Notes under the pieces: generated by a model | Seen by the model: only the letters and a program-made list of their open reading frames with translations | Database searches by the model: none | What the model was told of the DNA's origin: nothing | Made by a program: the position numbers and the translations under genes | Source of the DNA: Candidatus Poseidoniaceae archaeon | GTDB lineage: Archaea > Thermoplasmatota > Poseidoniia > Poseidoniales > Poseidoniaceae | DNA: 11,492 bases | NCBI GenBank assembly: GCA_022425185.1 | Contig: JAKMFY010000165.1 | Span: 1 to 11,492, forward strand | Direction of reading: 5' to 3' | Part shown: piece after piece, positions 840 to 11,492 of the stretch | Layout: each line of letters begins with the position of its first letter | Position numbering within the stretch: the stretch's first letter is position 1

Positions 840-1598
840 ATGTTGCGTAAGTTGATTGGCCTAATCGGCTTGTTAACTCTCGTTTTTGTGGTTGCCAATG
901 TACACTTCGGTGCTGTAGCGCCATATTTGGTTGAGGGTGCACCGAATTCAAGGCTTGATGTACTTCGATTAGCCGATCCTGGATGTACAATTCCAGAAAT
1001 GGAAAAGGAAATTTCAGAGACCGGAAATGCCTTTTGTCTTTCTGAATCAGGTACTTGGGGTACAGCTGATATCATTCTCCTCTGTTGGGGTTTGTTGATT
1101 GTAACAGCAGGTCGTTTCCGAATGCCTGCTAACCCTAAACTTGCCCGTAGAATACGTCGAATGATGATGATTTCAGGGTCGATGCTCTTTGGTTTGGCAA
1201 TTCTGGATCGATTTGAATTGTTGCCTACAGGAGCGAATTCTGAATCTCTCTCAGATTTGATTCCTTTCCCTCTTCCACCATGGTTTGTCCAAATTATCAT
1301 GGCTGTTGTTGGTGCATTGCTCCTAAGAGGTCCGAAATACCATGTTTCCGAGTTTGAAGAAAACTATCGTTCACTCGAGTCCGAACGTGAAAAAGAATTG
1401 AGAATGCAAAAGGTGTTTAATGAAAAAGCACGCTCGATGGCCGCTTCAAAGGAAGGCATTGCAAAGAGAAGTCGATTGCTCGATAGAGATGCCAGCCTTG
1501 TTCCATTTAGGACTCGGACTTCTCCAAGAGTACGTGCAACTTGCCCATATTGCAAAGGTGGCGGTTGTAAAGAGTGCAGAATGGCTGGTGTTGTCTGA
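840..1598 (+). CDS. Unrecognised four-helix membrane protein with C-terminal zinc knuckle
   Basis: I do not recognise this 252-residue protein. Four hydrophobic segments are visible at about residues 5-26, 74-91, 107-125 and 145-163. Between the first two is a roughly 45-residue loop with cysteines C49 and C66, which would lie outside the membrane and could form a disulfide. After the fourth helix comes a charged, probably helical cytosolic segment (170-215). The last 20 residues hold CPYCKGGGCKEC (235-246), a compact CxxC-x4-CxxC zinc site resembling half of a DnaJ-type zinc finger. Arg/Lys-rich stretches beside the second and third helices suit an inside location for that loop and for the C-terminus. 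The ATG start is leaderless or nearly so; no Shine-Dalgarno is seen. It stands alone between divergent nadB and the smc operon. A role in membrane protein quality control or redox sensing is conceivable but unsupported. Confidence 0.72.
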   Translation: MLRKLIGLIGLLTLVFVVANVHFGAVAPYLVEGAPNSRLDVLRLADPGCTIPEMEKEISETGNAFCLSESGTWGTADIILLCWGLLIVTAGRFRMPANPKLARRIRRMMMISGSMLFGLAILDRFELLPTGANSESLSDLIPFPLPPWFVQIIMAVVGALLLRGPKYHVSEFEENYRSLESEREKELRMQKVFNEKARSMAASKEGIAKRSRLLDRDASLVPFRTRTSPRVRATCPYCKGGGCKECRMAGVV

Positions 1599-1723: not shown

Positions 1724-4700
1724 ATGTTTCTAAAAGCACTTGAAATGGAGAACTTCAAATCGTTTCGTGGAGAGGTAATAATCCCTCTCGATCGTGGCTT
1801 TTCAGCCATCACTGGTCCCAATGGATCAGGGAAGTCCAACTGTGGAGATGGCATCCAATTTGTACTCGGTCCTAAATCAACTCGTACCATTCGTGCTCAA
1901 AATACGAAACAATTGATGTTTAATGGTGCTGAAGGATACAAACCAGCTCGTAACTGCACAGTCACCTTGGTTTTTGGAAATCCTGTACTTTCAAATGGAA
2001 GGCGACGCCTCCCAATTGAAAATGATGAAGTGCGTATGACCCGTTCAATACGATTGACCGCCTCAGATAACGTGGTTTCATCATACTTACTTGACGGAGA
2101 GGAAAGTTCACAGAAATCCTTCCATCGGTTACTCAACGCAGCAAATGCACGTCCTGATGGTTACAACATTGTTCTTCAAGGCGACGTAACGGGCTTGGCT
2201 CGAATGACTCCAATTGAACGTCGTAAGGTTCTCGATGGAGTTGCAGGCGTAACATCCTATGACGATGAAATTCGTAAAGCGAAGAAGCAACAAGACAACG
2301 TTGATTCCTATCTTGAGCGAATTGGTATGCTTCAAGAAGAGCAGCAGGTTCGTCTGAAAGAACTTTCAGAAGAGCGGAAGATTGCGGTTAAGGCTCAGTC
2401 CATTACAGATGAACTTACTCTTTCTCGCTCTCAACGATATCAAGCGATGTATGCGAGTCTACAATTTGAACTCCAACACCAGATTCAAGAGCAACTAAGG
2501 TACGTAGAAGAAGCCTCAATATTGGAAGAAGAAGTCAAAGATGGAAGTAAAATACTGGTCAGATTGGATGACAGAGTTGGTGAAATCCAAAAACAGATCG
2601 ACGATTTACTCGGTGGAGATGGAAATGCCCTCTCACAAGCCATTCACAGTTTGCGTGTTCAGGTTGACAGAGATAAAGATCGTATCGAAGATGCCAAACA
2701 AGCGGACATTGACGATAATGAAGAACTTGAAAACTCACTCGAAAGATACAATGAGGCCGCAAAAGCCCTCGAATCATTACTTACAGAGGTCAAAACCAGT
2801 ACCGACCAACTTGAAGAATGTGAGCGAATGTTGGTTGAAGCACAATCTGAAGAAGATGAAGTACGTTCACTACTCGAAGGCTCTGGTAAAACCAATGCCG
2901 AATTAAACAGGGCACTAGGCGATGCGATTGAAGCTCTCGAAGAAGCAAAAAAAGCAGTCGCTGCAGCACAATCAGAAGTAGATAGAACCGCTGCTCAAGT
3001 TGAACTCATCGCCTCTACACTTGGAAAAGCCGAAGAAAAATTCGAAGAATCCCGCCTTGAACTCGAAGAAAAAGAAGCAGAATTCAGAGCCATTAGCGGG
3101 TCGGGTAAGAAGGTTGACCGTTCTTCTTTGACACAAGGTATCATCGACTCAGAGAATGCAGAATCAAGACTACTTCAAGAAAACGCAGCAATTGAGCGGA
3201 GAATGACAGAAACAGAACGCCAACTTCGCTCAGCAAGAGCCGAACTCGAATCTAAATCTAATTCGAAGGGAATGGCTGGTGGTGCAGCAGCAGTTCTAGG
3301 AGCACGAGATCGTGGAGAATTGAGAGGTGTTATTGGTACCATTGCAGAATTGTGTGGCCCAATTAATGCTGAACATGAAACCGCTCTCGCGACTGCATTT
3401 GGTGGGGCTATGACCTCCGTTGTGGTTGATTCGGACCAGGTTGCAGCAGAAGCCATTCGCTGGCTTGCTCAGCGAAAAGCAGGAAGGGCAACCTTCCTTC
3501 CACTCAATAAATTAACAGCAAATCGAGCCGGTGGGAAAGCAATGATGGTTGCCCGTAAGCCAGGGGTAATTGGATTTGCATACGAACTTCTCGAATATGA
3601 TCCAAGAATTGACGCTGCAATCAAATTTGCTCTTCGAAATACACTCATTGTTGACAGTATGGAAATCGCTAGGCAGAACATGGGCGGAGTTCGACTTGTT
3701 ACAATGAGGGGGGACATAACCGAAGCAGGCGGTGCAATGGTTGGAGGTTCACGTGCACGTATGTCCGTTGGATTTGGCGGAGGAATCGCAGGTGCGAAAG
3801 AAGTTGAACGTCTTTCTACAGAAATCGAACGTCTACGTCTCATGTCAGATACTGTATCTGCTGCATTAATCGATGTTCGGTCTGAACAGAAATCATTGCG
3901 AAACCAAATCAATGAACTTGCAAATGAAGAAGGGACTCTCAAGCGAGAAACACTTCGAGCAGAGCTTTCATCATTCAAGAAAACCCATGCGACTTTGGTT
4001 GGTGAGGTACGGCAATTGAAAGAACAGCTGCAAGAACTTGAAACGCTAGGAGGCGTTCAACTCGAAGCTTTAGATACTGCTGAATGCAATGTGGCTGATG
4101 CTGACATTGTTCGAAAGAATGCTCACAGTGCGCTAGAAGATGCAAGTCCTCAACATTTGAAAGATCGACTGCATGAATCCACCATTAAGCGTACTAAGGC
4201 TGAAGGAATTCGCTCAAATGCGGAAGTTACTTTAAGAGGTGCATCTGAACGTAAAGAACTACTTACAAACAGTGCTAATGGTGAGGAAGAACGAATTTCA
4301 CAACTTAAATCAGGCCTTTCAGCCAGAGCGGAATCAGTTGTGCGATTGAAAGAATCAATTCGGACCAACGGAGAAGCCCTCGCTGAAAAGGAAGCAGAAC
4401 GTGCTCAATATCTTGAGGAGAATAAAGGGCTTGAAGATGAGCGATTAGAATTAGTAGAAGAGCGTGCTGGATTAAATTCCTCTCTGACTCAAAAAGCCAA
4501 CCAAGCACGAAGTCATCGAAATCTTTCATCAGAATTCGAGCGCACAATTCAACAAAAGCGACAGGAGCTCCATGGCGTAGAAATGGATATGGGGGCAACT
4601 GGAATTGAACCTGCAGAGGAAGGGGCAGTGCTTGACAGTGTTGCAGATATTGATCGCAGAATTCGTCGCCTTGAACGACGTTTGGAAGAATTCGGCATGG

Positions 4701-5593
4701 TCAACATGCGTGCTATTGAGCAATATGATGCAGTTGAAGAGCGGTTGAATGCTATGGAAGGAGACTTCAAGAAACTTAGAGATCGAAAGAAACAGCTGAT
4801 CGAGGTTGCAGAACGTTTGGAAGAACAACGCAAGATACGCTTGATTGCAGTACTTGAAAAGGTCAATGAGAACTTCAAAAAGGTGTATGAAGCTGTCAGC
4901 AATGGTGGTCGTGGAGAATTATATCTTGAGAATAAGGATGAGCCGTTTAAGGGTGGCCTAGAACTATGGGCTCAACCTAAAGGAAAGTCATCAAATGTTA
5001 CTCGACACCAATTATCTGGTGGCGAACAATCTGTTGCTGCGTTAGCTCTTATCTTCGCGATTCAAGACTATGATCCAAGTCCGTTCTACTACTTTGATGA
5101 AGTTGACCAGAATCTTGACAGTGTCAATGCTGAATGTATTGCTAAGATGTGCCGTGAACGCAGTAAGCGTGCACAATTCATTATGGTTACACTCAGAAAG
5201 GTTTCACTACAACTCGCAGATCATCACATCGGAATTACTCACGGTGGAGATGGATGCAGTCGTAGAATCGTGGATTTCGACCAGGAACAAGCAATTGCTC
5301 TTGGAGAACAAGCACTCAAGGAAGCAGAAACTGCAGCAGCAACCAATCAAAAGAGAGTGGAAGAAGAGCAAAAAGGACTTGCAGAAATGCCAACTGTTCC
5401 AGAACCTCTTCCGGCTCCACAAAGCCTTGGTGGCTTGTTGAAGCACATGGTCGAAGATGAGAGCATTGCTTCCTTGACAGAACGTACAATTGAAACGAAT
5501 GAGGATATTGAACAACGAGCAAAACTCGTTGAATCAATTGCCGAAATGGATGAAGAAGAAATAACTGAATCCTCTATAGAAAAGATAGAATGA
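1724..5593 (+). CDS. smc: SMC chromosome condensation ATPase with extended acidic C-terminus
   Basis: This is the core ATPase of the SMC-ScpAB condensin, which dimerises, binds DNA and organises and segregates the chromosome by ATP-driven loop formation. The 1289-residue protein has the complete SMC layout. An N-terminal half-ATPase carries Walker A GPNGSGKS (31-38) and a Q-loop region (about 151-175, LQGDVTGLARM). A first long coiled coil covers about 175-520, and the hinge lies at about 530-680 (GVIGTIAELCGPINAEH, later GGAMVGGSRA). A returning coiled coil spans about 685-1060. The C-terminal half-ATPase has signature LSGGEQ (1097-1102) and Walker B FYYFDE with D1125 and E1126, followed by the D-loop. 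The conserved fold ends near residue 1186. About 103 further acidic residues follow, including a proline-rich stretch PEPLPAP, and are not part of a standard SMC. The Walker A neighbourhood reads NCGDGIQFVLG, where many archaeal SMCs have an isoleucine and an alanine. It is first gene of the operon, 10 bases before scpA. Confidence 0.97.
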   Translation: MFLKALEMENFKSFRGEVIIPLDRGFSAITGPNGSGKSNCGDGIQFVLGPKSTRTIRAQNTKQLMFNGAEGYKPARNCTVTLVFGNPVLSNGRRRLPIENDEVRMTRSIRLTASDNVVSSYLLDGEESSQKSFHRLLNAANARPDGYNIVLQGDVTGLARMTPIERRKVLDGVAGVTSYDDEIRKAKKQQDNVDSYLERIGMLQEEQQVRLKELSEERKIAVKAQSITDELTLSRSQRYQAMYASLQFELQHQIQEQLRYVEEASILEEEVKDGSKILVRLDDRVGEIQKQIDDLLGGDGNALSQAIHSLRVQVDRDKDRIEDAKQADIDDNEELENSLERYNEAAKALESLLTEVKTSTDQLEECERMLVEAQSEEDEVRSLLEGSGKTNAELNRALGDAIEALEEAKKAVAAAQSEVDRTAAQVELIASTLGKAEEKFEESRLELEEKEAEFRAISGSGKKVDRSSLTQGIIDSENAESRLLQENAAIERRMTETERQLRSARAELESKSNSKGMAGGAAAVLGARDRGELRGVIGTIAELCGPINAEHETALATAFGGAMTSVVVDSDQVAAEAIRWLAQRKAGRATFLPLNKLTANRAGGKAMMVARKPGVIGFAYELLEYDPRIDAAIKFALRNTLIVDSMEIARQNMGGVRLVTMRGDITEAGGAMVGGSRARMSVGFGGGIAGAKEVERLSTEIERLRLMSDTVSAALIDVRSEQKSLRNQINELANEEGTLKRETLRAELSSFKKTHATLVGEVRQLKEQLQELETLGGVQLEALDTAECNVADADIVRKNAHSALEDASPQHLKDRLHESTIKRTKAEGIRSNAEVTLRGASERKELLTNSANGEEERISQLKSGLSARAESVVRLKESIRTNGEALAEKEAERAQYLEENKGLEDERLELVEERAGLNSSLTQKANQARSHRNLSSEFERTIQQKRQELHGVEMDMGATGIEPAEEGAVLDSVADIDRRIRRLERRLEEFGMVNMRAIEQYDAVEERLNAMEGDFKKLRDRKKQLIEVAERLEEQRKIRLIAVLEKVNENFKKVYEAVSNGGRGELYLENKDEPFKGGLELWAQPKGKSSNVTRHQLSGGEQSVAALALIFAIQDYDPSPFYYFDEVDQNLDSVNAECIAKMCRERSKRAQFIMVTLRKVSLQLADHHIGITHGGDGCSRRIVDFDQEQAIALGEQALKEAETAAATNQKRVEEEQKGLAEMPTVPEPLPAPQSLGGLLKHMVEDESIASLTERTIETNEDIEQRAKLVESIAEMDEEEITESSIEKIE

Positions 5594-5599
5594 GGCGAT
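5592..5599 (+). promoter_or_regulatory. Shine-Dalgarno of scpA overlapping the smc stop codon
   Basis: GAGGCGAT begins inside the smc TGA (5591-5593) and ends four bases before the GTG at 5604. It differs by one base from GAGGTGAT, the complement of the archaeal 16S rRNA tail. It supports the GTG start, for which no in-frame ATG alternative lies nearby, and suggests translational coupling. Confidence 0.7.
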
Positions 5600-5603
5600 A
5601 TTC

Positions 5604-6779
5604 GTGGGTCAAAAGGGTTTAGATCAATGGTTCCTTCGTCAGGATGTCATCGATCAATTGCTCCAAAGTGGAGATGATGACCTTGAAGGAATCAATGCCT
5701 ATGCCGACAGAATCATGATGATCGCTCAAACCGAAGAGGCTGAGCATCAAACACTTGATGACCCATTTGACAGAAGCGTAGCTCTCGTCATGTCCTTAGT
5801 TGGTAGCGAAGGATTGGATGCTTGGAACATTGATTTGACCAGTTTTCTCAAACAATTTACAAAACGAGTGAAATCTCAAGCCAGTGATTTGGATTTACCT
5901 GCTTGTGGCCGCCTTATTCGTATGGCTTGGGAAGTACTTCATCATCAAGCAGCCCTACTCTTTGACCGTGTGCAGTATCAAGATCAAGGGGATGAATGGG
6001 ATACAGGCTTTGATTTCGGTTGGGAAGCAGAGTATGATGACCATGAATTTCACTTTACCAATACGGTTCTCCAAGGTGATGCTGATGATGTTCTTGTTGG
6101 CCTTTTCGATGAGCGAGTTCGACGTGATGAAGGTCGTCCAGTTACCTTAGGTGAACTTCTTTCAGCACTAAAGGATGCAGCAGAAGATGCAGATGCCATT
6201 AAGCAGCGAGAAGAGAATAGAGCTGCCCATGCAGTCGAATTAGAAGATATGCTTTCGAATGTTGGGGGGCGTATGCACAATGAAGATTTAGATGGAGATA
6301 TCGAACGATGTTGGACAGCACTTCGTCAAACAACTCAATCTATGAAATCGAATAATGTCCCGCTTAAAGAAGTGATGAACGCCCTAAGACCAATTTTGGA
6401 AATGACATTTGGAGTTCTTCCCGAAGGCTATGAAAAGGATGCAAAGGTGAGTTCCTTCATTGCCGGATTGTTCCTAACACACAAGGGAATTGCATCGATT
6501 ACGCAAGGAAATGAGATTACTGACATCATCATGATTGAAGATCTCTGGCCAAAATTAGATACATTTGTTGAAGTCATTGAAGCGAGCCAAAAAGAGGATG
6601 AAGTATCAATAACAAATCGTGCAGATGCCAAAACGGGGTCAATGCTCCATGCTGAGAGATTACAATTGCGCGCAGAGAAGGCTCGTGAGGCAGAAGAAAA
6701 ACTGCGTTTGAAGAAGGAGAAGGAACTTCTTCATGAAGAAAATAAGATTAACGAAAGTCTTGATTGGCTTGTTGAATGA
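5604..6779 (+). CDS. scpA: ScpA, kleisin subunit of SMC-ScpAB condensin, with N- and C-terminal extensions
   Basis: ScpA is the kleisin that bridges the two SMC heads and recruits ScpB. The kleisin N-terminal domain is recognisable from about residue 53 (DPFDRSVALVMSLV, then LDAWNIDLTSFLKQF at 71-85). It continues with the archaeal-type helix ending in DLDLPACGRLIRMAWEVL (95-112), which contacts the SMC neck. A second conserved element, RPVTLGELLSALKDA, lies at 178-192. The C-terminal winged helix that docks on the other SMC head is at about 279-313 (SSFIAGLFLTHKG...ITDIIMIEDL). At 391 residues it is far longer than the usual 220-280. An extra N-terminal segment of about 50 residues, an acidic aromatic-rich insert (125-160) and a charged coiled-coil-like tail (about 340-391) account for the difference. 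The start is GTG with a good Shine-Dalgarno. The gene is 10 bases after smc and 9 before scpB. Assignment rests on motif resemblance plus position between smc and scpB. Confidence 0.88.
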   Translation: MGQKGLDQWFLRQDVIDQLLQSGDDDLEGINAYADRIMMIAQTEEAEHQTLDDPFDRSVALVMSLVGSEGLDAWNIDLTSFLKQFTKRVKSQASDLDLPACGRLIRMAWEVLHHQAALLFDRVQYQDQGDEWDTGFDFGWEAEYDDHEFHFTNTVLQGDADDVLVGLFDERVRRDEGRPVTLGELLSALKDAAEDADAIKQREENRAAHAVELEDMLSNVGGRMHNEDLDGDIERCWTALRQTTQSMKSNNVPLKEVMNALRPILEMTFGVLPEGYEKDAKVSSFIAGLFLTHKGIASITQGNEITDIIMIEDLWPKLDTFVEVIEASQKEDEVSITNRADAKTGSMLHAERLQLRAEKAREAEEKLRLKKEKELLHEENKINESLDWLVE

Positions 6780-6785
6780 GGTGAT
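6778..6785 (+). promoter_or_regulatory. Shine-Dalgarno of scpB overlapping the scpA stop codon
   Basis: GAGGTGAT starts within the scpA TGA (6777-6779) and lies three bases before ATG 6789. It is a full 8-base match to the expected anti-Shine-Dalgarno complement, fixes the scpB start and implies reinitiation by ribosomes finishing scpA. Confidence 0.75.
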
Positions 6786-6788
6786 GAA

Positions 6789-7391
6789 ATGACTGAATTA
6801 GCATTAGAAACTCTTCTCGAAGCAACTTTATTCGGTTCTGGTAAATCGATGTCAATAACTGAACTTTCAGAATCTCTTGGATATGAGGAAGAGGAAATCA
6901 CAGAATCGTTGAATACTCTTCAGGGAACTATGAAGCGGAGACGGGGCGGCGCATTGCGGCTCGTGGAAATCGGTGGTAAATGGGCAATGGAAGTTCGGAA
7001 TGAAGTTACAGATCATCTTCCTGCAAGTACCAAGACAGACATGCCGAAGAAATTACTCAAGGCTGCTGCACTGATTGCTTACCATCAACCAATGCACCAA
7101 TCAAGGCTTGTTGAATTACTTGGCCAAAAAGCGTATGATTACGTACGAGAACTTGCTCAATATGGGATGATTCAAAGAAGAAAGGAAGGCAACACTCGTC
7201 GGTTAACGACGACACGTCGTTTTTCTGAAGCCTTTGGCTGCCCTCATACAGATCTGCGGAAAGTACGGAAGTGGTTCAGGGAACAAGTTACTGATGCAGG
7301 TCTATTTGATGGGATGGAAGAAGTTGATGCATTGCAAGAAATTGGTGAAGATGGCCTTATCCAAGCCACCTTGCCACTGGAAGAAGAGTGA
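6789..7391 (+). CDS. scpB: ScpB, winged-helix partner of ScpA in the SMC condensin
   Basis: ScpB dimers bind the central part of ScpA and regulate the SMC ATPase. The 200-residue protein has the two tandem winged helices of the family. The first covers about residues 3-80 (LETLLEATLFGSGKSMSITEL). The second covers about 85-150 and contains LLKAAALIAYHQPMHQSRL, the counterpart of the classical ALETLAIIAYxQPxTRxEI motif, followed by a G-N-T-R-R-L wing and FSEAFGC. Length matches typical ScpB (170-220 residues). The ending, LPLEEE, is short and acidic. It is the last gene of the smc operon: the next gene is convergent and its stop codon directly abuts this one. The ATG start has an ideal Shine-Dalgarno. 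Confidence 0.93.
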   Translation: MTELALETLLEATLFGSGKSMSITELSESLGYEEEEITESLNTLQGTMKRRRGGALRLVEIGGKWAMEVRNEVTDHLPASTKTDMPKKLLKAAALIAYHQPMHQSRLVELLGQKAYDYVRELAQYGMIQRRKEGNTRRLTTTRRFSEAFGCPHTDLRKVRKWFREQVTDAGLFDGMEEVDALQEIGEDGLIQATLPLEEE

Positions 7392-7394
7392 TCA
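7389..7394. other. Abutting convergent stop codons forming the palindrome TGATCA
   Basis: The scpB stop (TGA, 7389-7391) and the HMG-CoA reductase stop (TGA on the minus strand, 7392-7394) touch without a spacer, giving the 6-base palindrome TGATCA. Transcripts of both genes must therefore end inside the opposing coding sequence. Confidence 0.9.
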
Positions 7395-8729
7395 AGAGCG
7401 ATATGTTTCAAGTATCTCCGAAACCTTTGTTTGAGTAATTGGCCCATCATGTTCAATCAAGAGTTTAGCAACATCATCTATTTCATTGCCTTCTGCGCCA
7501 GCACTGACAGCCATATTTCTAGCGTGGAGCCTCATATGCCCTTTTTGTATTCCACTTGTAGCGAGGGCTCTTAGCGCCCCTAAATTCTGAGCAAGTCCTG
7601 CTGCAGCCATGACAGAAGCAAGTTCTTGTGCAGATTCAACACCAAGAATCTCTAGGTTTGTCCGAGCAACAGGATGCACTTTGGAGGCACCTCCCACAAT
7701 TCCAACCGCCATAGGTGTCTCAATAGAGCCAACTAAATTACCTTCCGAATCAAGTTCCCAGTGAGTCATAGATCCGTATCTTCCTTGAGAATAGGCGACA
7801 TATGCGTGACAACCTGCTTCGATGGCTCTCCAATCCTGGCCACATGCTACAGCAACTGCGGATATGCCGTTCATGACGCCTTTGTTGTGTGTTGCAGCTC
7901 TGTATGGGTCTGAGACTGCAAAATGATATGCTTCAAGTATGCCTTCAATGATCTTCAGACCATCCCTTCGTTCACCATTGTTGCTCATTTCTTCAGGGGT
8001 AAACGTGGCTTTGACCCTCGCAAGCCTTTCTGTTGCTAAATTAGATAAAATACGTAACAATGCCCTTCCCTTTGTCATTCTTTCAAGTTCGGGGGCCAGA
8101 AGTTCTGCCATTGTATTAACAGCGTTTGCACCCATTGCATCCCTGCAGTCTACGTGGATGTGGACAATAAACATCTGACCAGAGAGGCTTTCTATGCTTC
8201 GAGTTGTGATTTCTTTACATCCTCCCCCAAGACGTATCATCGTGGAAGGTAAACTGTTTGCTAATTCTATTAAGGCCTCCTTGTTCTCAAGAACTGCCTT
8301 TTCGGCCTCATCATGATTCTGAATATCAAGGATTTGGATTTGAGCAATCATCATCGGTCCGTCATTAGTTGATGTGAAGCCTCCATGGGTATGGCAACGC
8401 TTGGCCATGTTCGAAGCAGCAGCTACAACGCTTGATTCTTCAAGGCAAAAGGGGATAACGTACTGCTTTTCATCTATAATGAAGTTCGTGGCAACGCCCA
8501 CTGGAAGTGACATCGTGCCGATGACATTCTCAATCATCCGATCTGCTGCGCTGTCGTCCAGTTCTCCATTTTTTGCTAACGCAGCAACCTGTTCGGGGGC
8601 CAGATTAGAGAGTTCTGCAATAAGTTGACGTCGTTCATCGACAGACAGTTTGTAGAATCCTTTCAAGCGGCTGTTATCGACAGGCATGGTCTCTCTCCCC
8701 ATGCGAGCCAGATGTTCTTGAAACATCAA
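7392..8729 (-). CDS. hmgA: Hydroxymethylglutaryl-CoA reductase, class II
   Basis: The enzyme reduces HMG-CoA to mevalonate, the committed step toward archaeal isoprenoid lipids. It belongs to class II, like the Pseudomonas mevalonii and Archaeoglobus enzymes. Visible motifs are ENVIGTMSLPVGVATNF (67-83), EESSVVAAASNMAK (97-110) with catalytic E98, and DCRDAMGANAVNTMAE (194-209). Catalytic K283 lies in HNKGVMNG (282-288), D299 in GQDWRAIEAGCHAY, and the C-terminal histidine motif GHMRLHARNMA at 397-407 includes H402. The substrate and cofactor elements are intact. Length, 445 residues, is normal or slightly long. The family usually begins near MPVDNSRLKGF, residue 15 here, so translation may start at 8687, which follows a purine-rich GGGGAG. 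The outer ATG at 8729 would suit a leaderless start. Class II enzymes may use NADH or NADPH; the sequence does not settle which. The gene is convergent with scpB and divergent from the ATPase gene, behind a palindrome-rich control region. Confidence 0.95.
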   Translation of the reverse strand: MMFQEHLARMGRETMPVDNSRLKGFYKLSVDERRQLIAELSNLAPEQVAALAKNGELDDSAADRMIENVIGTMSLPVGVATNFIIDEKQYVIPFCLEESSVVAAASNMAKRCHTHGGFTSTNDGPMMIAQIQILDIQNHDEAEKAVLENKEALIELANSLPSTMIRLGGGCKEITTRSIESLSGQMFIVHIHVDCRDAMGANAVNTMAELLAPELERMTKGRALLRILSNLATERLARVKATFTPEEMSNNGERRDGLKIIEGILEAYHFAVSDPYRAATHNKGVMNGISAVAVACGQDWRAIEAGCHAYVAYSQGRYGSMTHWELDSEGNLVGSIETPMAVGIVGGASKVHPVARTNLEILGVESAQELASVMAAAGLAQNLGALRALATSGIQKGHMRLHARNMAVSAGAEGNEIDDVAKLLIEHDGPITQTKVSEILETYRS

Positions 8730-8743
8730 CCAATCGGAACAAA

Positions 8744-8798
8744 TTAACGCGTTTAACGCTTTAATTAACGCGTTAAAAAGGCGTTAATGATACGTTAA
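8744..8798. repeat. Cluster of TTAACGCGTTAA-type palindromes and half-sites (putative operator)
   Basis: Within 55 bases lie the near-palindrome TTAACGCGTTTAA (8744-8756), TTTAACGC (8752-8759), TTAATTAA (8761-8768), the perfect 12-base palindrome TTAACGCGTTAA (8765-8776), GCGTTAA (8781-8787) and ACGTTAA (8792-8798). An outlying CGTTTAACG sits at 8827-8835. The arrangement resembles a multi-site operator for a dimeric helix-turn-helix regulator over the HMG-CoA reductase core promoter. An origin-type binding cluster is an alternative. Confidence 0.6.
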
Positions 8799-8870
8799 TC
8801 GAAAGAATATCTGTCCTCTCGTTATTCGTTTAACGTGTCCTAACAGGTCGCTCATAGCCCCAAATTCCGT

Positions 8871-8884
8871 GAAAGGTCATATAC
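8871..8884 (+). promoter_or_regulatory. BRE/TATA-like promoter of the ATPase gene
   Basis: Purine-rich GAAAGG (8871-8876) is followed by CATATAC (8878-8884), centred about 24 bases before ATG 8905. That is the spacing expected when an archaeal transcript begins at or next to its start codon. There is no Shine-Dalgarno before the ATG, which agrees with leaderless initiation. Confidence 0.5.
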
Positions 8885-8904: not shown

Positions 8905-10611
8905 ATGCATACTGGGACAGTGGATTTGCGCCTACCAAGTCTTCGAGAAGATCCATTTTCCCAAGGGCCACTCTCGGCAAAAGATTCCAACCTTCTTGTA
9001 GGAAGGCATTCATATTTCGAAGAAATGGAGAAAAACATCCAATTCAAATCCTCTCGCAGGATTTTACTTGTTGGAGAATATGGTTCCGGTAAAACATCAT
9101 TTGTCAATTGTCTTGGTGGAAAAACCAACTTGCACATTCATGTTGACCGAATTGACACAGTTAATCCTGGTCTTGAACTACTGCGAGATATTTATTCACA
9201 AGTTGTTAATGTGACTGCTCCGAGTGATCACAAAAAGCTTGAGCGAGAACTTGCAGCATCCCTTCATAGCAAGAGAAATTACTTACCTCTGATTTCTGTT
9301 GATGCTGATATGGCTGATATTGCCTCTCTAGAAGCGTGCTTACTCGCCTCAGTGCCATTTTTCGAACGTTTAGCAGCGTTGATCATTGTGGCCGTTAATC
9401 CAAATCAAAAGTCACTTCTTTCCGAACAAATCAGAGAACGCTTCGAAGTTCGACCAATGGAAGAATTAGATGCGGACAGTGTAAAAGCCCTCGTTGAACG
9501 TCGAATTGGAACTTGTTCAAACGAACCCTATCAGATGACGACTGAAGAGGCTGGAAAGGTATTGGGTGCGAGCAGAAACGGGCATCCTGGTTCAATCATC
9601 AAAGTTCTACGCTCAGTAATCGACGGGCAGATGTTGCCTGAGTTACCTCAGAGTCCGGTTTCAGAAAATATGGTTATTGAGGACATCCCTTCACCAGTAC
9701 CTCAAGAAATTGATACAGGTATTTCCAATCAGGAACATGAATTGCTTGATGGATTGGAATCAAAGGAAGCCTCAGAACAAAAAGAAGAAGAAGTCGCCCA
9801 AGATATTGATGAGTGGAAAGATGGACCTGGTATGTCGGGAACAATGGGCTTCGATCTTAATCTTGAAGAACTTGAAGAGCCAACTGTTGAGGAAATGAAA
9901 GAAAAACCCATTGAGGATACCTACGTAACTGAAGACGATTTCAAGCCAGTGGGTATCTTCGGTGGACTTAGAGGTCGTTGGAAACAGACAAGCCAATCGA
10001 TAGATGAAATACAAGAACCAGAAGGCGAGTATCAACAACTCGATGGTGCGAATTCCTTATGGGTAAGCAAAAACTCACTTCCGATACAGGATGAGGAGGT
10101 GGAGGATATCCCTCCTGCTGAAAACGCCCTAGAACCTGAATCTCTCATAGTCGAGACATTCGAGGCAGATTACCAAGAGATGATTCAAGAGAACACTCAT
10201 CAGCCAAACGATTTGATCTTGAAAACCCTTACTGATTTGCTTTCAAAACTTCTTACTCCTTCTGGAGATACTATGGTTTCCAACAAACTTGCTGAAAGCT
10301 TACAAACGCTTTCCCGACCTAAAATAGGGGGCAAAGAGGAACACCCCCTCAATGTCCAAGTTTTGACATCACTCACAAAAGCTGAAACCATTGTGGTTTC
10401 AATTGCTCAACAACGAAGTGTCTCTCCCTCAGACAAACAATTATTGGAGAAATTGAACATAAAAAGAGCAAGACTTTCTCAGATTTGTAACCGATTACAT
10501 AAGGCAGGTATTCTCGATGTGAGGATGGTGGGGCGATCTCGAATGTTTGGTCTGACAAGAACAGCACTTGCTCAGATGATGGCATGGGGTCTCGTAGGAG
10601 GTGATGTGTGA
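8905..10611 (+). CDS. AAA-type P-loop ATPase with acidic linker and C-terminal winged helix
   Basis: This 568-residue protein has three parts. Residues about 28-240 form an AAA/ORC-like ATPase. It has an N-terminal VGR element (32-34), Walker A GEYGSGKTS (57-65), a weak Walker B LISVDAD (129-135), a sensor-1-like strand LIIVAVNPN (159-167) and a sensor-2-like RNGHPGSIIKVL (224-235). Residues about 245-430 are a long, very acidic, low-complexity linker rich in Glu, Asp and Pro. Residues about 484-557 look like a MarR-type winged helix (LTSLTKAETIVVSIAQQ, then LSQICNRLHKAGILDVR and a basic wing with GRSRMFGL). The architecture recalls Orc1/Cdc6 or other archaeal AAA-plus-winged-helix proteins. 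However, the Walker B lacks the usual D-E pair and the acidic spacer is not typical of Orc1, so I leave it unnamed. No membrane segment is seen. The stop overlaps the start of the beta-propeller gene, so the two are probably one unit. Confidence 0.82.
   Translation: MHTGTVDLRLPSLREDPFSQGPLSAKDSNLLVGRHSYFEEMEKNIQFKSSRRILLVGEYGSGKTSFVNCLGGKTNLHIHVDRIDTVNPGLELLRDIYSQVVNVTAPSDHKKLERELAASLHSKRNYLPLISVDADMADIASLEACLLASVPFFERLAALIIVAVNPNQKSLLSEQIRERFEVRPMEELDADSVKALVERRIGTCSNEPYQMTTEEAGKVLGASRNGHPGSIIKVLRSVIDGQMLPELPQSPVSENMVIEDIPSPVPQEIDTGISNQEHELLDGLESKEASEQKEEEVAQDIDEWKDGPGMSGTMGFDLNLEELEEPTVEEMKEKPIEDTYVTEDDFKPVGIFGGLRGRWKQTSQSIDEIQEPEGEYQQLDGANSLWVSKNSLPIQDEEVEDIPPAENALEPESLIVETFEADYQEMIQENTHQPNDLILKTLTDLLSKLLTPSGDTMVSNKLAESLQTLSRPKIGGKEEHPLNVQVLTSLTKAETIVVSIAQQRSVSPSDKQLLEKLNIKRARLSQICNRLHKAGILDVRMVGRSRMFGLTRTALAQMMAWGLVGGDV
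10597..10605 (+). promoter_or_regulatory. Perfect Shine-Dalgarno of the beta-propeller gene inside the ATPase gene
   Basis: GGAGGTGAT is a nine-base match to the expected complement of the archaeal 16S rRNA tail. It lies five bases before ATG 10611, which shares its A with the ATPase stop TGA (10609-10611). It decides the start of the downstream gene and indicates translational coupling. Confidence 0.8.
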
Positions 10612-11492
10612 TGTCTTGGACAGTTTCATGGTCTTGGCAAGCCCCATCTCGAATTAGTGCAATCGCCGCAATAGATGGTCATCTTGCAGTAGCCTATGGT
10701 CTCGATTTGGTTCTCTTCAATGAATCAAATGAGATTCAGTGGAAGCAAACAATGCCTTTCAAAGTACACGCAATTTGTAACGGTGAAGGGACAATCGGTA
10801 TTTTGGCAGCACATGGTTTCTTTGTCGTCAAAACTGTTGATGGGACTATGCTACATGAGGGCAGGAGCAGCCCTGGTGGGTTCTTGCACCTTTTACATCG
10901 ACCTGGTGGGGGTTGGATTCTTTCTGGAAGAGATGGAAATCTCCACCTTTTCGATTCGAATGGAAAAGGGATACGCAGAATCTCTTCGGGAATTGTTCGA
11001 AGACTTGTTGGATGGCTCGATCGGGAGCATTTGCTATGGCAATCTTCTGAAGGAGTTATTTTGTGTGGACAAATAGCGAATCAAGATAAACGCAGAGTTA
11101 TTGATACAACGGTTTGGAGTTGGTGCTCCTTGCTTATGGATGGTCGATTACTCATGTTATCTTCTGATGGTCAATTATGGGAAGGAACCCCACATCCATT
11201 CGGATGGGATTCTATGGATCGAGTTGAAACAGATTCACTAGAACCTCTTATGGCAACTCGTGCAGGAGATGGCTGGTGGGTACTCGGAATTGAAGGGCAT
11301 CTCGACCATTTAGCCTCTGAAAACGAATTGTCGCGAATAGGAGATGGTATGCAACTTGGAGATTTACTTCTACGGTTGGGCCGTAATTCTATGATCACTG
11401 CTCGCAGAGACGGATTGACAAGGCGTTGGGTCGATCCTGCACTTGCAGAAGAAGAAAAGCGGCACAGGCACCAAGAAGCAGCAGATGCAAAA
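10611..11492 (+). CDS. Beta-propeller-like protein (cut by window end)
   Basis: The frame from ATG 10611 stays open for 294 codons to the window end; the C-terminus is missing. The protein is Trp- and Gly-rich and built of short hydrophobic strands separated by turns. Recurring units resemble beta-propeller blades: IDGHLAVAYGLDLVLFN (21-37), TIGILAAHGFFVVKTVDG (61-78), GWILSGRDGNLHLFDSNG (101-118), HLLWQSSEGVILCG (140-153), GRLLMLSSDGQLWEG (178-192), GWWVLGIEGHLDHL (221-234) and SMITARRDGLTRRWVD (260-275). That makes about six or seven blades, WD40- or PQQ-like, but without strict GH/WD dipeptides. From residue 278 the sequence becomes charged and helical (EEEKRHRHQEAA), suggesting a coiled coil or linker beyond the window. 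No signal peptide is present, so it is probably cytosolic. One-base overlap with the ATPase gene suggests the two proteins act together, perhaps with the propeller as a binding platform. Confidence 0.75.
   Translation, partial: MSWTVSWSWQAPSRISAIAAIDGHLAVAYGLDLVLFNESNEIQWKQTMPFKVHAICNGEGTIGILAAHGFFVVKTVDGTMLHEGRSSPGGFLHLLHRPGGGWILSGRDGNLHLFDSNGKGIRRISSGIVRRLVGWLDREHLLWQSSEGVILCGQIANQDKRRVIDTTVWSWCSLLMDGRLLMLSSDGQLWEGTPHPFGWDSMDRVETDSLEPLMATRAGDGWWVLGIEGHLDHLASENELSRIGDGMQLGDLLLRLGRNSMITARRDGLTRRWVDPALAEEEKRHRHQEAADAK

What the first reader, a model, noticed from the sequence alone, without database searches (positions are those of the whole stretch)
8905..11492. Coupled AAA ATPase (winged helix) and beta-propeller gene pair of unknown function
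The two genes share one base (stop and start overlap), and the second has a perfect nine-base Shine-Dalgarno, so they are translated together. The first combines an ORC/AAA-like P-loop domain, a roughly 190-residue acidic linker and a C-terminal winged helix. The second is propeller-like with a charged tail. This ATPase plus DNA-binding domain plus interaction platform arrangement does not match a named system I know. The acidic linker could mimic DNA or recruit partners. This is the best candidate for an undescribed system in the window.
Basis: partly seen in the sequence, partly recalled or inferred. Interest (0 to 1): 0.72.

Follow-up and report, generated by a model that had tools for sequence, protein, structure and literature searches.

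The report
Self-marked DNA-binding switch of marine archaea
Nearly all sampled genomes of one order of marine archaea carry an unusual DNA-binding protein with a nucleotide-binding-type domain, and its gene sits behind an array of short repeated DNA sites that was found almost only there, which points to a self-controlled switch of still unknown purpose.

Summary
The gene pair is real, and part of a three-gene unit: P-loop/winged-helix gene, propeller gene, DUF357. The window is a whole contig of a Poseidoniales (Marine Group II) genome and cuts the propeller gene short. The first gene was found in 185 of 193 genomes of the order; 7 of the other 8 also lack its neighbour HMG-CoA reductase, and in the eighth the contig ends between the two. 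No clear relative was seen outside the order. The propeller gene lies directly behind it in 80 of 81 genomes, but only 10 of 55 genomes of one family have it: an accessory. The 'ATPase' is degenerate: Walker-A Lys is Arg in 39 of 55 members; none has Glu after the Walker-B Asp.

The main new finding lies upstream: TTAACG half-sites in an 11-bp-phased, partly inverted array, locked in position to this gene's promoter. A paired-site pattern matched 54 times in 29 of 39 Poseidoniales genomes; 52 matches lie 54-212 bp upstream of this gene.

Best reading: an ORC/STAND-like DNA-binding switch that controls its own operon (works like MalT; not shown to be a STAND). Bolder, not excluded: a centromere-like or SMC-loading site. 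Sampled strand asymmetry argues against an origin. No binding was measured.

The parts
8744..8798 (.). Main repeat array: TTAACG half-sites F8744, F8753, F8765 / R8771 (palindrome TTAACGCGTTAA), R8782, R8793; the last three 11 bp apart
   Evidence: 6 matches to TTAACGNNTTAA with <=1 mismatch (3 places, both strands) against 0.47 expected, 0 of 200 shuffles reach 6; at least one exact hexamer in 65 of 65 distinct upstream regions placed by the script, median 5; paired pattern almost only at this place
8830..8846 (+). Promoter-proximal half-site TTAACG (8830) and degenerate CTAACA (8840)
   Evidence: Seen in the consensus of 47 f1 sequences at about -75/-64 from the start codon; exact TTAACG in 17 of 40 aligned f1 rows
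8878..8883 (+). TATA-like box CATATA, 27 nt before the ATG (leaderless-type archaeal promoter, inferred)
   Evidence: TATA-like hexamer at -27 to -29 in 36 of 47 f1 sequences; no such fixed position in the 18 f2 sequences
8905..10611 (+). P-loop (AAA_16/ORC/STAND-like) domain - acidic linker - C-terminal winged-helix protein, 568 aa
   Evidence: 185 of 193 genomes of the order
9073..9099 (+). Walker A, GEYGSGKTS (residues 57-65); Lys here, Arg in 39 of 55 members
9652..10344 (+). Acidic linker with conserved short motifs around F316-D-L-x-L, G350-x-F-G-G-L-x-x-R358, L385-W386
   Evidence: R358 100%, W386 98% of 55 rows; net charge -40
10348..10608 (+). C-terminal winged-helix-like DNA-binding domain (SPSD...IKRARLSQICNRL...GRSRMF)
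   Evidence: most conserved stretch of the protein; MarR_2 E=0.003 in the window, 7 of 12 members at E<=0.1, below cut-off
10598..10606 (+). Shine-Dalgarno GGAGGTGAT of the propeller gene
10611..11492 (+). Beta-propeller-like protein with helical C-terminus, cut by the contig end (294 of about 345 aa)
7392..8729 (-). Divergent HMG-CoA reductase, context only
   Evidence: PF00368 1.2e-110; adjacent in 26 of 26 loci
1724..7391 (+). SMC, ScpA-position and ScpB genes upstream, context
   Evidence: SMC TIGR02169 6.8e-224, ScpB PF04079 6.4e-26; SMC in 24 of 26 loci

Best explanation
The gene encodes a Poseidoniales-specific DNA-binding switch protein: an N-terminal ORC/STAND-like nucleotide-binding module (degenerate, so binding rather than turnover), a flexible acidic linker with partner-docking motifs, and a C-terminal winged helix. 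The protein binds cooperatively to the array of TTAACG half-sites, largely on one face of the DNA because many sites are about 11 bp apart, just upstream of its own BRE/TATA box, and so sets expression of the operon P-loop gene - (propeller) - DUF357. The propeller, translated from the coupled second gene, is an accessory sensor or docking subunit. Shown: gene structure, conservation, operon order, the near-uniqueness and position lock of the array, residue degeneracy. Inferred: that this protein binds the array, the autoregulation and its sign, oligomerisation, the role of the propeller, and the downstream task (probably chromosome maintenance, from the SMC/DUF357 context).
For: Paired-site pattern TTAACGN5TTAACG: 54 matches in 29 of 39 Poseidoniales genomes, none in 8 other genomes; 52 of 54 lie 54-212 bp upstream of this gene, in 27 genomes, where about 0.9 would be expected over all 39 genomes from the hexamer density; one more is upstream of HMGR at a contig end, one in an unrelated gene. 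No 120-bp stretch of 800 kb sampled from G002 has more than 2 hexamers, the array has 4 there and 7 in the window. In 62 regions the first core site keeps its distance to this gene (median 207, sd 19, IQR 206-236.5) better than to HMGR (median 235, sd 32, IQR 213-266); some shifts are about one helical turn. HMGR genes of two sister-class genomes, a class in which the protein was not found, have no array upstream. The array is present in the five loci without the propeller and in loci without the MarR gene F14. TATA-like box between array and start codon in f1. GxP motif (G226 53/55, P228 50/55), called a conserved STAND motif in PMC6468293 (passages).
Against: No binding, expression or structure data. 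The AlphaFold model of this protein failed (mean pLDDT 35), so the fold of both domains rests on weak sequence matches. Four to eight half-sites are more than a simple autoregulator needs. Another protein encoded nearby, such as the divergent Orc1/Cdc6 (24 of 26 loci), could be the binder. In 10 of 39 genomes the strict paired pattern is absent, though looser arrays are seen in several of them. Two motif positions are exact in under half of the 40 aligned f1 rows. In f2 no fixed TATA position was found.
Confidence: 0.5

Rival explanations
1. Centromere-like or SMC-loading module: the winged-helix protein nucleates on the single array and recruits SMC-ScpA, as ParB on parS does in bacteria; the linker motifs dock SMC or kleisin.
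For: One array per genome in the searches made; smc-scpA-scpB lies about 1.5-7 kb upstream in the window and SMC is in 24 of 26 loci; helically phased repeats; conserved linker motifs; gene and DUF357 conserved across the order.
Against: In L056 the SMC genes are not upstream while gene, array and HMGR stay together. The array is locked to the promoter side, which a centromere does not need. It is not at a strand-asymmetry switch in G002; bacterial parS sites are most often near the origin (abstract start of PMC7333895).
Confidence: 0.12
2. Replication origin: the array is an iteron-type origin recognised by this ORC-like protein or by the divergent Orc1/Cdc6 encoded a few kb away.
For: Domain order P-loop then winged helix as in Orc1/Cdc6; iteron-like array; divergent Orc1/Cdc6 about 3.5-7 kb from the array in loci read, in 24 of 26 loci; two Orc1/Cdc6 hits in 10 of 11 genomes.
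Against: Third-position AT asymmetry of G002 changes sign near 1.2 Mb and somewhere in a mixed zone of about 0.13-0.57 Mb; the stretches around 0.695 Mb are uniformly negative. In G127 the GC asymmetry changes sign between 108 and 155 kb, the array is at 208.5 kb; the G180 contig shows no clear switch. Sampled, not complete, sequence, and noisy.
Confidence: 0.08
3. The array is the operator of another regulator, and the P-loop protein works elsewhere, for example as a stand-in for the HerA-type DNA translocase that accompanies DUF357 in other Thermoplasmatota.
For: HerA-like genes (PF01935 1.3e-38 in L126) adjoin DUF357 in 8 of 20 loci of other genomes of the phylum, once with SMC-ScpA (L126); of 22 Poseidoniales genomes searched with that HerA none gave a full-length match, 10 gave short pieces at 25-33% identity.
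Against: Three sister-class (f3) loci have no such HerA beside DUF357 either, and that class gave no P-loop protein match, so a direct swap is not shown; a degenerate P-loop is unlikely to pump DNA; the array goes with this gene and not with HMGR or F14.
Confidence: 0.2
4. Ordinary single-target transcription repressor with a decayed, functionless P-loop; the propeller and DUF357 are unrelated passengers.
For: Walker-A Lys to Arg 39 of 55, variable sensor-1 and Arg-finger positions; propeller missing from 45 of 55 f2 genomes.
Against: The P-loop glycines, S65 and D133 are invariant and R200, R236 and the GxP motif nearly so, which is selection, not decay; DUF357 follows in 25 of 25 informative loci.
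Confidence: 0.1

Closest known systems
MalT and other STAND ATPases
   Same: AAA+-derived NBD-HD with GxP motif; separate DNA-binding end; cooperative binding to several promoter sites (four in malPp800, PMC10427625, passages); a repeat-type sensor partner (here a propeller in its own gene)
   Different: No winged helix directly behind the helical domain; about 230 low-conservation residues in between; Walker-A Lys mostly Arg; winged-helix rather than LuxR-type DNA-binding domain (LuxR type recalled); propeller in a separate, dispensable gene
Orc1/Cdc6 (archaeal initiators)
   Same: AAA_16-type P-loop domain followed by a C-terminal winged helix; repeats next to the gene
   Different: No Cdc6_lid and no significant Cdc6_C match; no Walker-B Glu; profile alignment limited to the P-loop region; separate Orc1/Cdc6 genes also present; not at a strand-asymmetry switch
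ParB-parS (SMC loading) and iteron centromeres
   Same: One array per genome in the searches made, DNA-binding protein encoded beside it, SMC genes near
   Different: No ParB match in the family scans; array locked to a promoter; not at the asymmetry switches of G002
HerA-DUF357 neighbourhoods of other Thermoplasmatota
   Same: P-loop protein encoded just before DUF357, once beside SMC-ScpA
   Different: Different P-loop family; no cluster of more than two hexamers in those loci

Membership tests
STAND ATPases | NBD-HD module with P-loop and GxP motif | tested here: met
   P-loop Gly invariant; GxP G226 53/55, P228 50/55; nSTAND1 model hit in 9 of 12 members at E<=0.1, window protein E=0.02, below cut-off. 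Motif named in PMC6468293 passages; sequence level only
STAND ATPases | Walker-A Lys for nucleotide phosphate binding | tested here: not met
   Arg in 39 of 55, Lys in 16 of 55 including the window
STAND ATPases | STAND-specific winged helix directly after the helical domain | tested here: not met
   Acidic linker of 182-333 residues in the 15 rows printed; no structure
STAND ATPases | Repeat-type sensor domain in the same chain | tested here: not met
   Propeller in a separate gene, absent from 45 of 55 f2 genomes
Orc1/Cdc6 | Match to Cdc6_lid/Cdc6_C and AAA core over the whole domain | tested here: not met
   Cdc6_C E=0.093, no Cdc6_lid; hhalign over 48-82 columns only
Orc1/Cdc6 | Walker-B Asp-Glu | tested here: not met
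   Asp 55/55; next residue Glu in 0 of 55
MarR/winged-helix DNA-binding proteins | Match above curated cut-off | tested here: not met
   MarR_2 18.0 bits against cut-off 27; structure prediction failed
ParB-parS | Protein binds the site and loads SMC | not testable with these tools
   needs ChIP or Hi-C
Beta-propeller proteins | Propeller fold | tested here: inconclusive
   Foldseek: top matches mostly propellers, 694 hits at E<=0.001, but model pLDDT 49 and TM about 0.3
DUF357 (third gene) | PF04010 above cut-off | tested here: met
   75.7 bits against 29.4 in L032

The most novel reading that the evidence does not exclude
An archaeal counterpart of ParB-parS: a single chromosomal centromere-like array of TTAACG iterons bound by an ORC/STAND-like winged-helix protein that recruits the neighbouring SMC-ScpA machine through its linker motifs, with its own promoter as the loading site.
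Probability: 0.12. Interest if true: 0.88.

Novelty: new variant of a known kind. Interest (0 to 1): 0.58.

Why it matters
Poseidoniales are among the most abundant archaea of surface seas (recalled), and this protein, array and DUF357 unit was found almost throughout the order, yet the protein has no match above cut-off in Pfam or NCBIfam. If the array is the only target, it is a self-contained one-site switch built from a degenerate ORC/STAND module. If the array also loads SMC, it would make directly testable how euryarchaeal SMC complexes find their chromosomes; none of the abstract starts listed names an archaeal loader. Either way the candidate binding site is now defined to the base and can be tested in vitro.

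Tried and rejected
Orc1/Cdc6 orthology: rejected. Origin at the array: disfavoured by strand asymmetry in G002, G127 and G180, sampled only. HMGR operator: disfavoured, because the array keeps its distance to the P-loop gene better and is missing at two sister-class HMGR genes. MarR-type F14 as the necessary binder: rejected, 14 of 26 loci lack it (among them the window, whose contig ends before its place) while each has at least one exact hexamer upstream of the P-loop gene. Loss of the gene in 8 genomes: 7 of the 8 lack HMGR too, and in G119 the contig begins just upstream of HMGR, so I read these as missing sequence. Viral relatives: none in two viral-contig scans. Fold search for the P-loop protein: not run, the model was too poor. 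Relatives outside the order: 35 genomes of the phylum matched weakly; in the 12 of them that I searched again only pieces of the P-loop domain (up to about 135 residues) or, once, of the winged helix matched; beyond the phylum only one close-relative scan of genome contigs was made, which returned six loci titled as Poseidoniales or euryarchaeal MAGs. Literature: DUF357; Poseidoniales with ScpA/SMC; Marine Group II with origin and Cdc6; Poseidoniales with winged helix; AAA_16 with propeller: no paper on this protein or array in the listings, some of which were capped.
Full report
WHAT WAS CHECKED. The window is a complete contig of a genome of the order Poseidoniales (named relatives; the family names Poseidoniaceae for f1, Thalassarchaeaceae for f2 and Marine Group III for f3 are recalled, the tool gives codes only). 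The two genes are as described: ORF 8905-10611, one-base overlap TGATG at 10609-10613, Shine-Dalgarno GGAGGTGAT at 10598-10606. The second ORF runs off the contig; full-length relatives have about 345 aa and end in helices.

CONTEXT. In 26 loci drawn from both families of the order, including the window and one genome twice (L035, L037), the usual order is smc - scpA - scpB - HMGR (opposite strand) - P-loop gene - propeller - DUF357, followed at most loci by genes on the other strand up to a divergent orc1/cdc6. Counts: SMC 24 of 26, HMGR 26, P-loop gene 26, propeller 21, Orc1/Cdc6 24. DUF357 was clustered in 21 loci and found by tblastn in the other four that extend far enough, so 25 of 25. 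In L056 the SMC genes are not upstream; L045 is cut by its contig end.

DISTRIBUTION. The P-loop protein matched in 185 of 193 genomes of the order. Of the 8 without it, 7 also lack the neighbouring HMGR; G119 has HMGR at a contig end, so I read these as incomplete sequence. None of the 7 sister-class (f3) genomes matched; 35 other genomes of the phylum gave weak matches, and the 12 of them that I searched again show only pieces. The propeller is in 71 of 72 f1 genomes and 10 of 55 f2 genomes (my count from the listings; the denominators are genomes with a P-loop-profile match, one of which, G030, is weak; propeller hits of about 60 residues, G028 among them, are not counted). It sits downstream of the P-loop gene on the same contig and strand in 80 of 81 cases, within 70 nt in 79; in G073 the listing showed 1,043 nt because only part of the P-loop gene was listed, and reading the stretch shows the two genes directly adjoining, with DUF357 next. 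In five propeller-less loci (L051-L053, L055, L056) the P-loop gene is followed directly by DUF357.

THE P-LOOP PROTEIN. 55 distinct members were aligned (59 distinct by their last 300 aa; four rows from L004, L036 and L051, incomplete, were dropped). The three P-loop glycines, S65 and Walker-B D133 are invariant; R200 is 54/55 and R236 52/55. K63 is Arg in 39 and Lys in 16. The residue after D133 is never Glu (0 of 55; one position further D in 11 and E in 1); the sensor-1 position is E/T/N/D/S and the putative Arg finger is Arg in 20 of 55. This argues for nucleotide binding or a structural role, not turnover; that step is inference. A GxP motif is present (53/55, 50/55), a conserved STAND motif according to PMC6468293 (passages read). 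The linker has conserved spots in a poorly conserved acidic background: F316, L318, L323; G350, F352, L355, R358 (100%); W386 (98%). The C-terminal block around 504-566 is the most conserved stretch. The structure prediction failed with five close sequences (pLDDT 35).

THE ARRAY. The HMGR/P-loop intergenic region holds TTAACG and its complement in a fixed pattern. In the window: forward sites at 8744, 8753, 8765, reverse at 8771 (making TTAACGCGTTAA), 8782, 8793, and a forward site at 8830. Six loose matches (three places, both strands) against 0.47 expected; none of 200 shuffles reached six. The 65 distinct upstream regions that my script could anchor (from 102 loci, many duplicates) each have at least one exact hexamer: median 5, range 1-9; L049, which the script missed, has six; high-GC members keep a TAACG core (L044, L045). 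In f1 the sites mostly fall at the same distances from the conserved Asn/Asp-Pro-Phe codons (206, 197, 185, 179, 168, 157, 120), with shifts of about 10-12 bp in some and about -8 in a few; f2 has its own pattern. The distance to the P-loop gene is steadier than that to HMGR (62 regions with both anchors). A TATA-like box lies at -27 to -29 in 36 of 47 f1 sequences, downstream of the sites; f2 shows no fixed position. Sites upstream of the TATA box are activator-type geometry (inference).

UNIQUENESS. TTAACGN5TTAACG was searched in 47 whole genomes: 29 of 39 Poseidoniales match, 0 of 8 others. Of 54 matches 52 lie 54-212 bp upstream of the P-loop gene of that genome (27 genomes); one (G062) lies upstream of HMGR at a contig end, and one (G073) in an unrelated membrane-protein gene. 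From the hexamer density in G002 about 0.9 pairs would be expected over 39 genomes. In 800 kb of G002, 387 kb of G180 and 397 kb of G127 outside the locus, no 120-bp stretch holds more than two hexamers. The tool's own control (pattern read backwards) gave 17 matches in the 47 genomes by my addition of its columns; its base order differs, so I rely on the density estimate. Ten Poseidoniales genomes have no strict pair, several of them with visibly looser arrays. Arrays with other spacings elsewhere were looked for only in the sampled stretches. The array was missing at the HMGR genes of two sister-class genomes.

MECHANISM. The simplest account is that the winged helix of the protein binds the array cooperatively, the P-loop module mediating assembly, and thereby controls its operon. 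MalT is the closest working analogue: a STAND protein that assembles and binds several promoter sites cooperatively (PMC10427625, passages). The family fails three STAND features (see membership test), so it is 'works like', not 'is a'. The propeller would be a sensor or docking subunit added in trans and missing from many f2 genomes. The wider task is probably chromosome maintenance: SMC neighbourhood; DUF357 stands beside a HerA-like translocase gene in 8 of 20 loci of other genomes of the phylum, once also beside SMC-ScpA (L126); but L056 shows that the unit can stand apart from the SMC genes.

TESTS AGAINST BOLDER READINGS. Strand asymmetry at third codon positions in 41 stretches of the closed genome G002: AT asymmetry is negative in every stretch from 0.57 to 1.2 Mb, positive in every stretch from 1.24 Mb past the end to about 0.12 Mb, and mixed between (one stretch there could not be scored); the array at 0.695 Mb is inside the negative half. 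In G127 the GC asymmetry is negative in the five stretches to 128 kb and mostly positive from 135 kb; the array is at 208.5 kb (one stretch next to it is slightly negative). In G180 no clear switch is seen on the contig. This argues against an origin and weakens, without excluding, a parS-like role.

LITERATURE. Seen as search listings and abstract starts only. Passages read: PMC10427625, PMC7055376, PMC6468293. No listing showed this protein or array.

Noticed in passing
L126:3857-7109 (G249), L124, L125, L127-L129, L133, L139: DUF357 in other genomes of the phylum follows a HerA-like (DUF87) ATPase gene in 8 of 20 fetched loci; in L126 the order is SMC - ScpA-like - proteasome-type AAA - HerA - DUF357.
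   Followed up: partly
L032:13820-15037 and relatives: A divergent second Orc1/Cdc6 is encoded a few kb from the array in 24 of 26 loci; a more canonical Orc1/Cdc6 is elsewhere in 10 of 11 genomes searched.
   Followed up: partly
window 5604-6779: The gene in the scpA position has no Pfam ScpA match (only DUF2383, E=0.004), while ScpB next to it matches clearly; PMC7055376 (passages) reports that the archaeal ScpA proteins tested did not bind ScpB, so this juxtaposed pair is worth a test.
   Followed up: no
window 840-1598: Membrane-protein-like gene ending in a Cys-rich zinc-ribbon-like motif just upstream of SMC, no Pfam match; family F13 in 13 of 26 loci.
   Followed up: no
G002 whole contig: Third-position AT asymmetry divides the closed genome into two halves with a switch near 1.2 Mb and another in a mixed zone of about 0.13-0.57 Mb; neither Orc1/Cdc6 gene (0.70 and 1.83 Mb) is at a switch.
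   Followed up: partly
L218 and L219, bases 73-131: Contigs of two different genomes (G062, G119) both begin 72 bases before the first array site, with identical site spacing, as if assemblies break or are cut at the same point beside the array.
   Followed up: no
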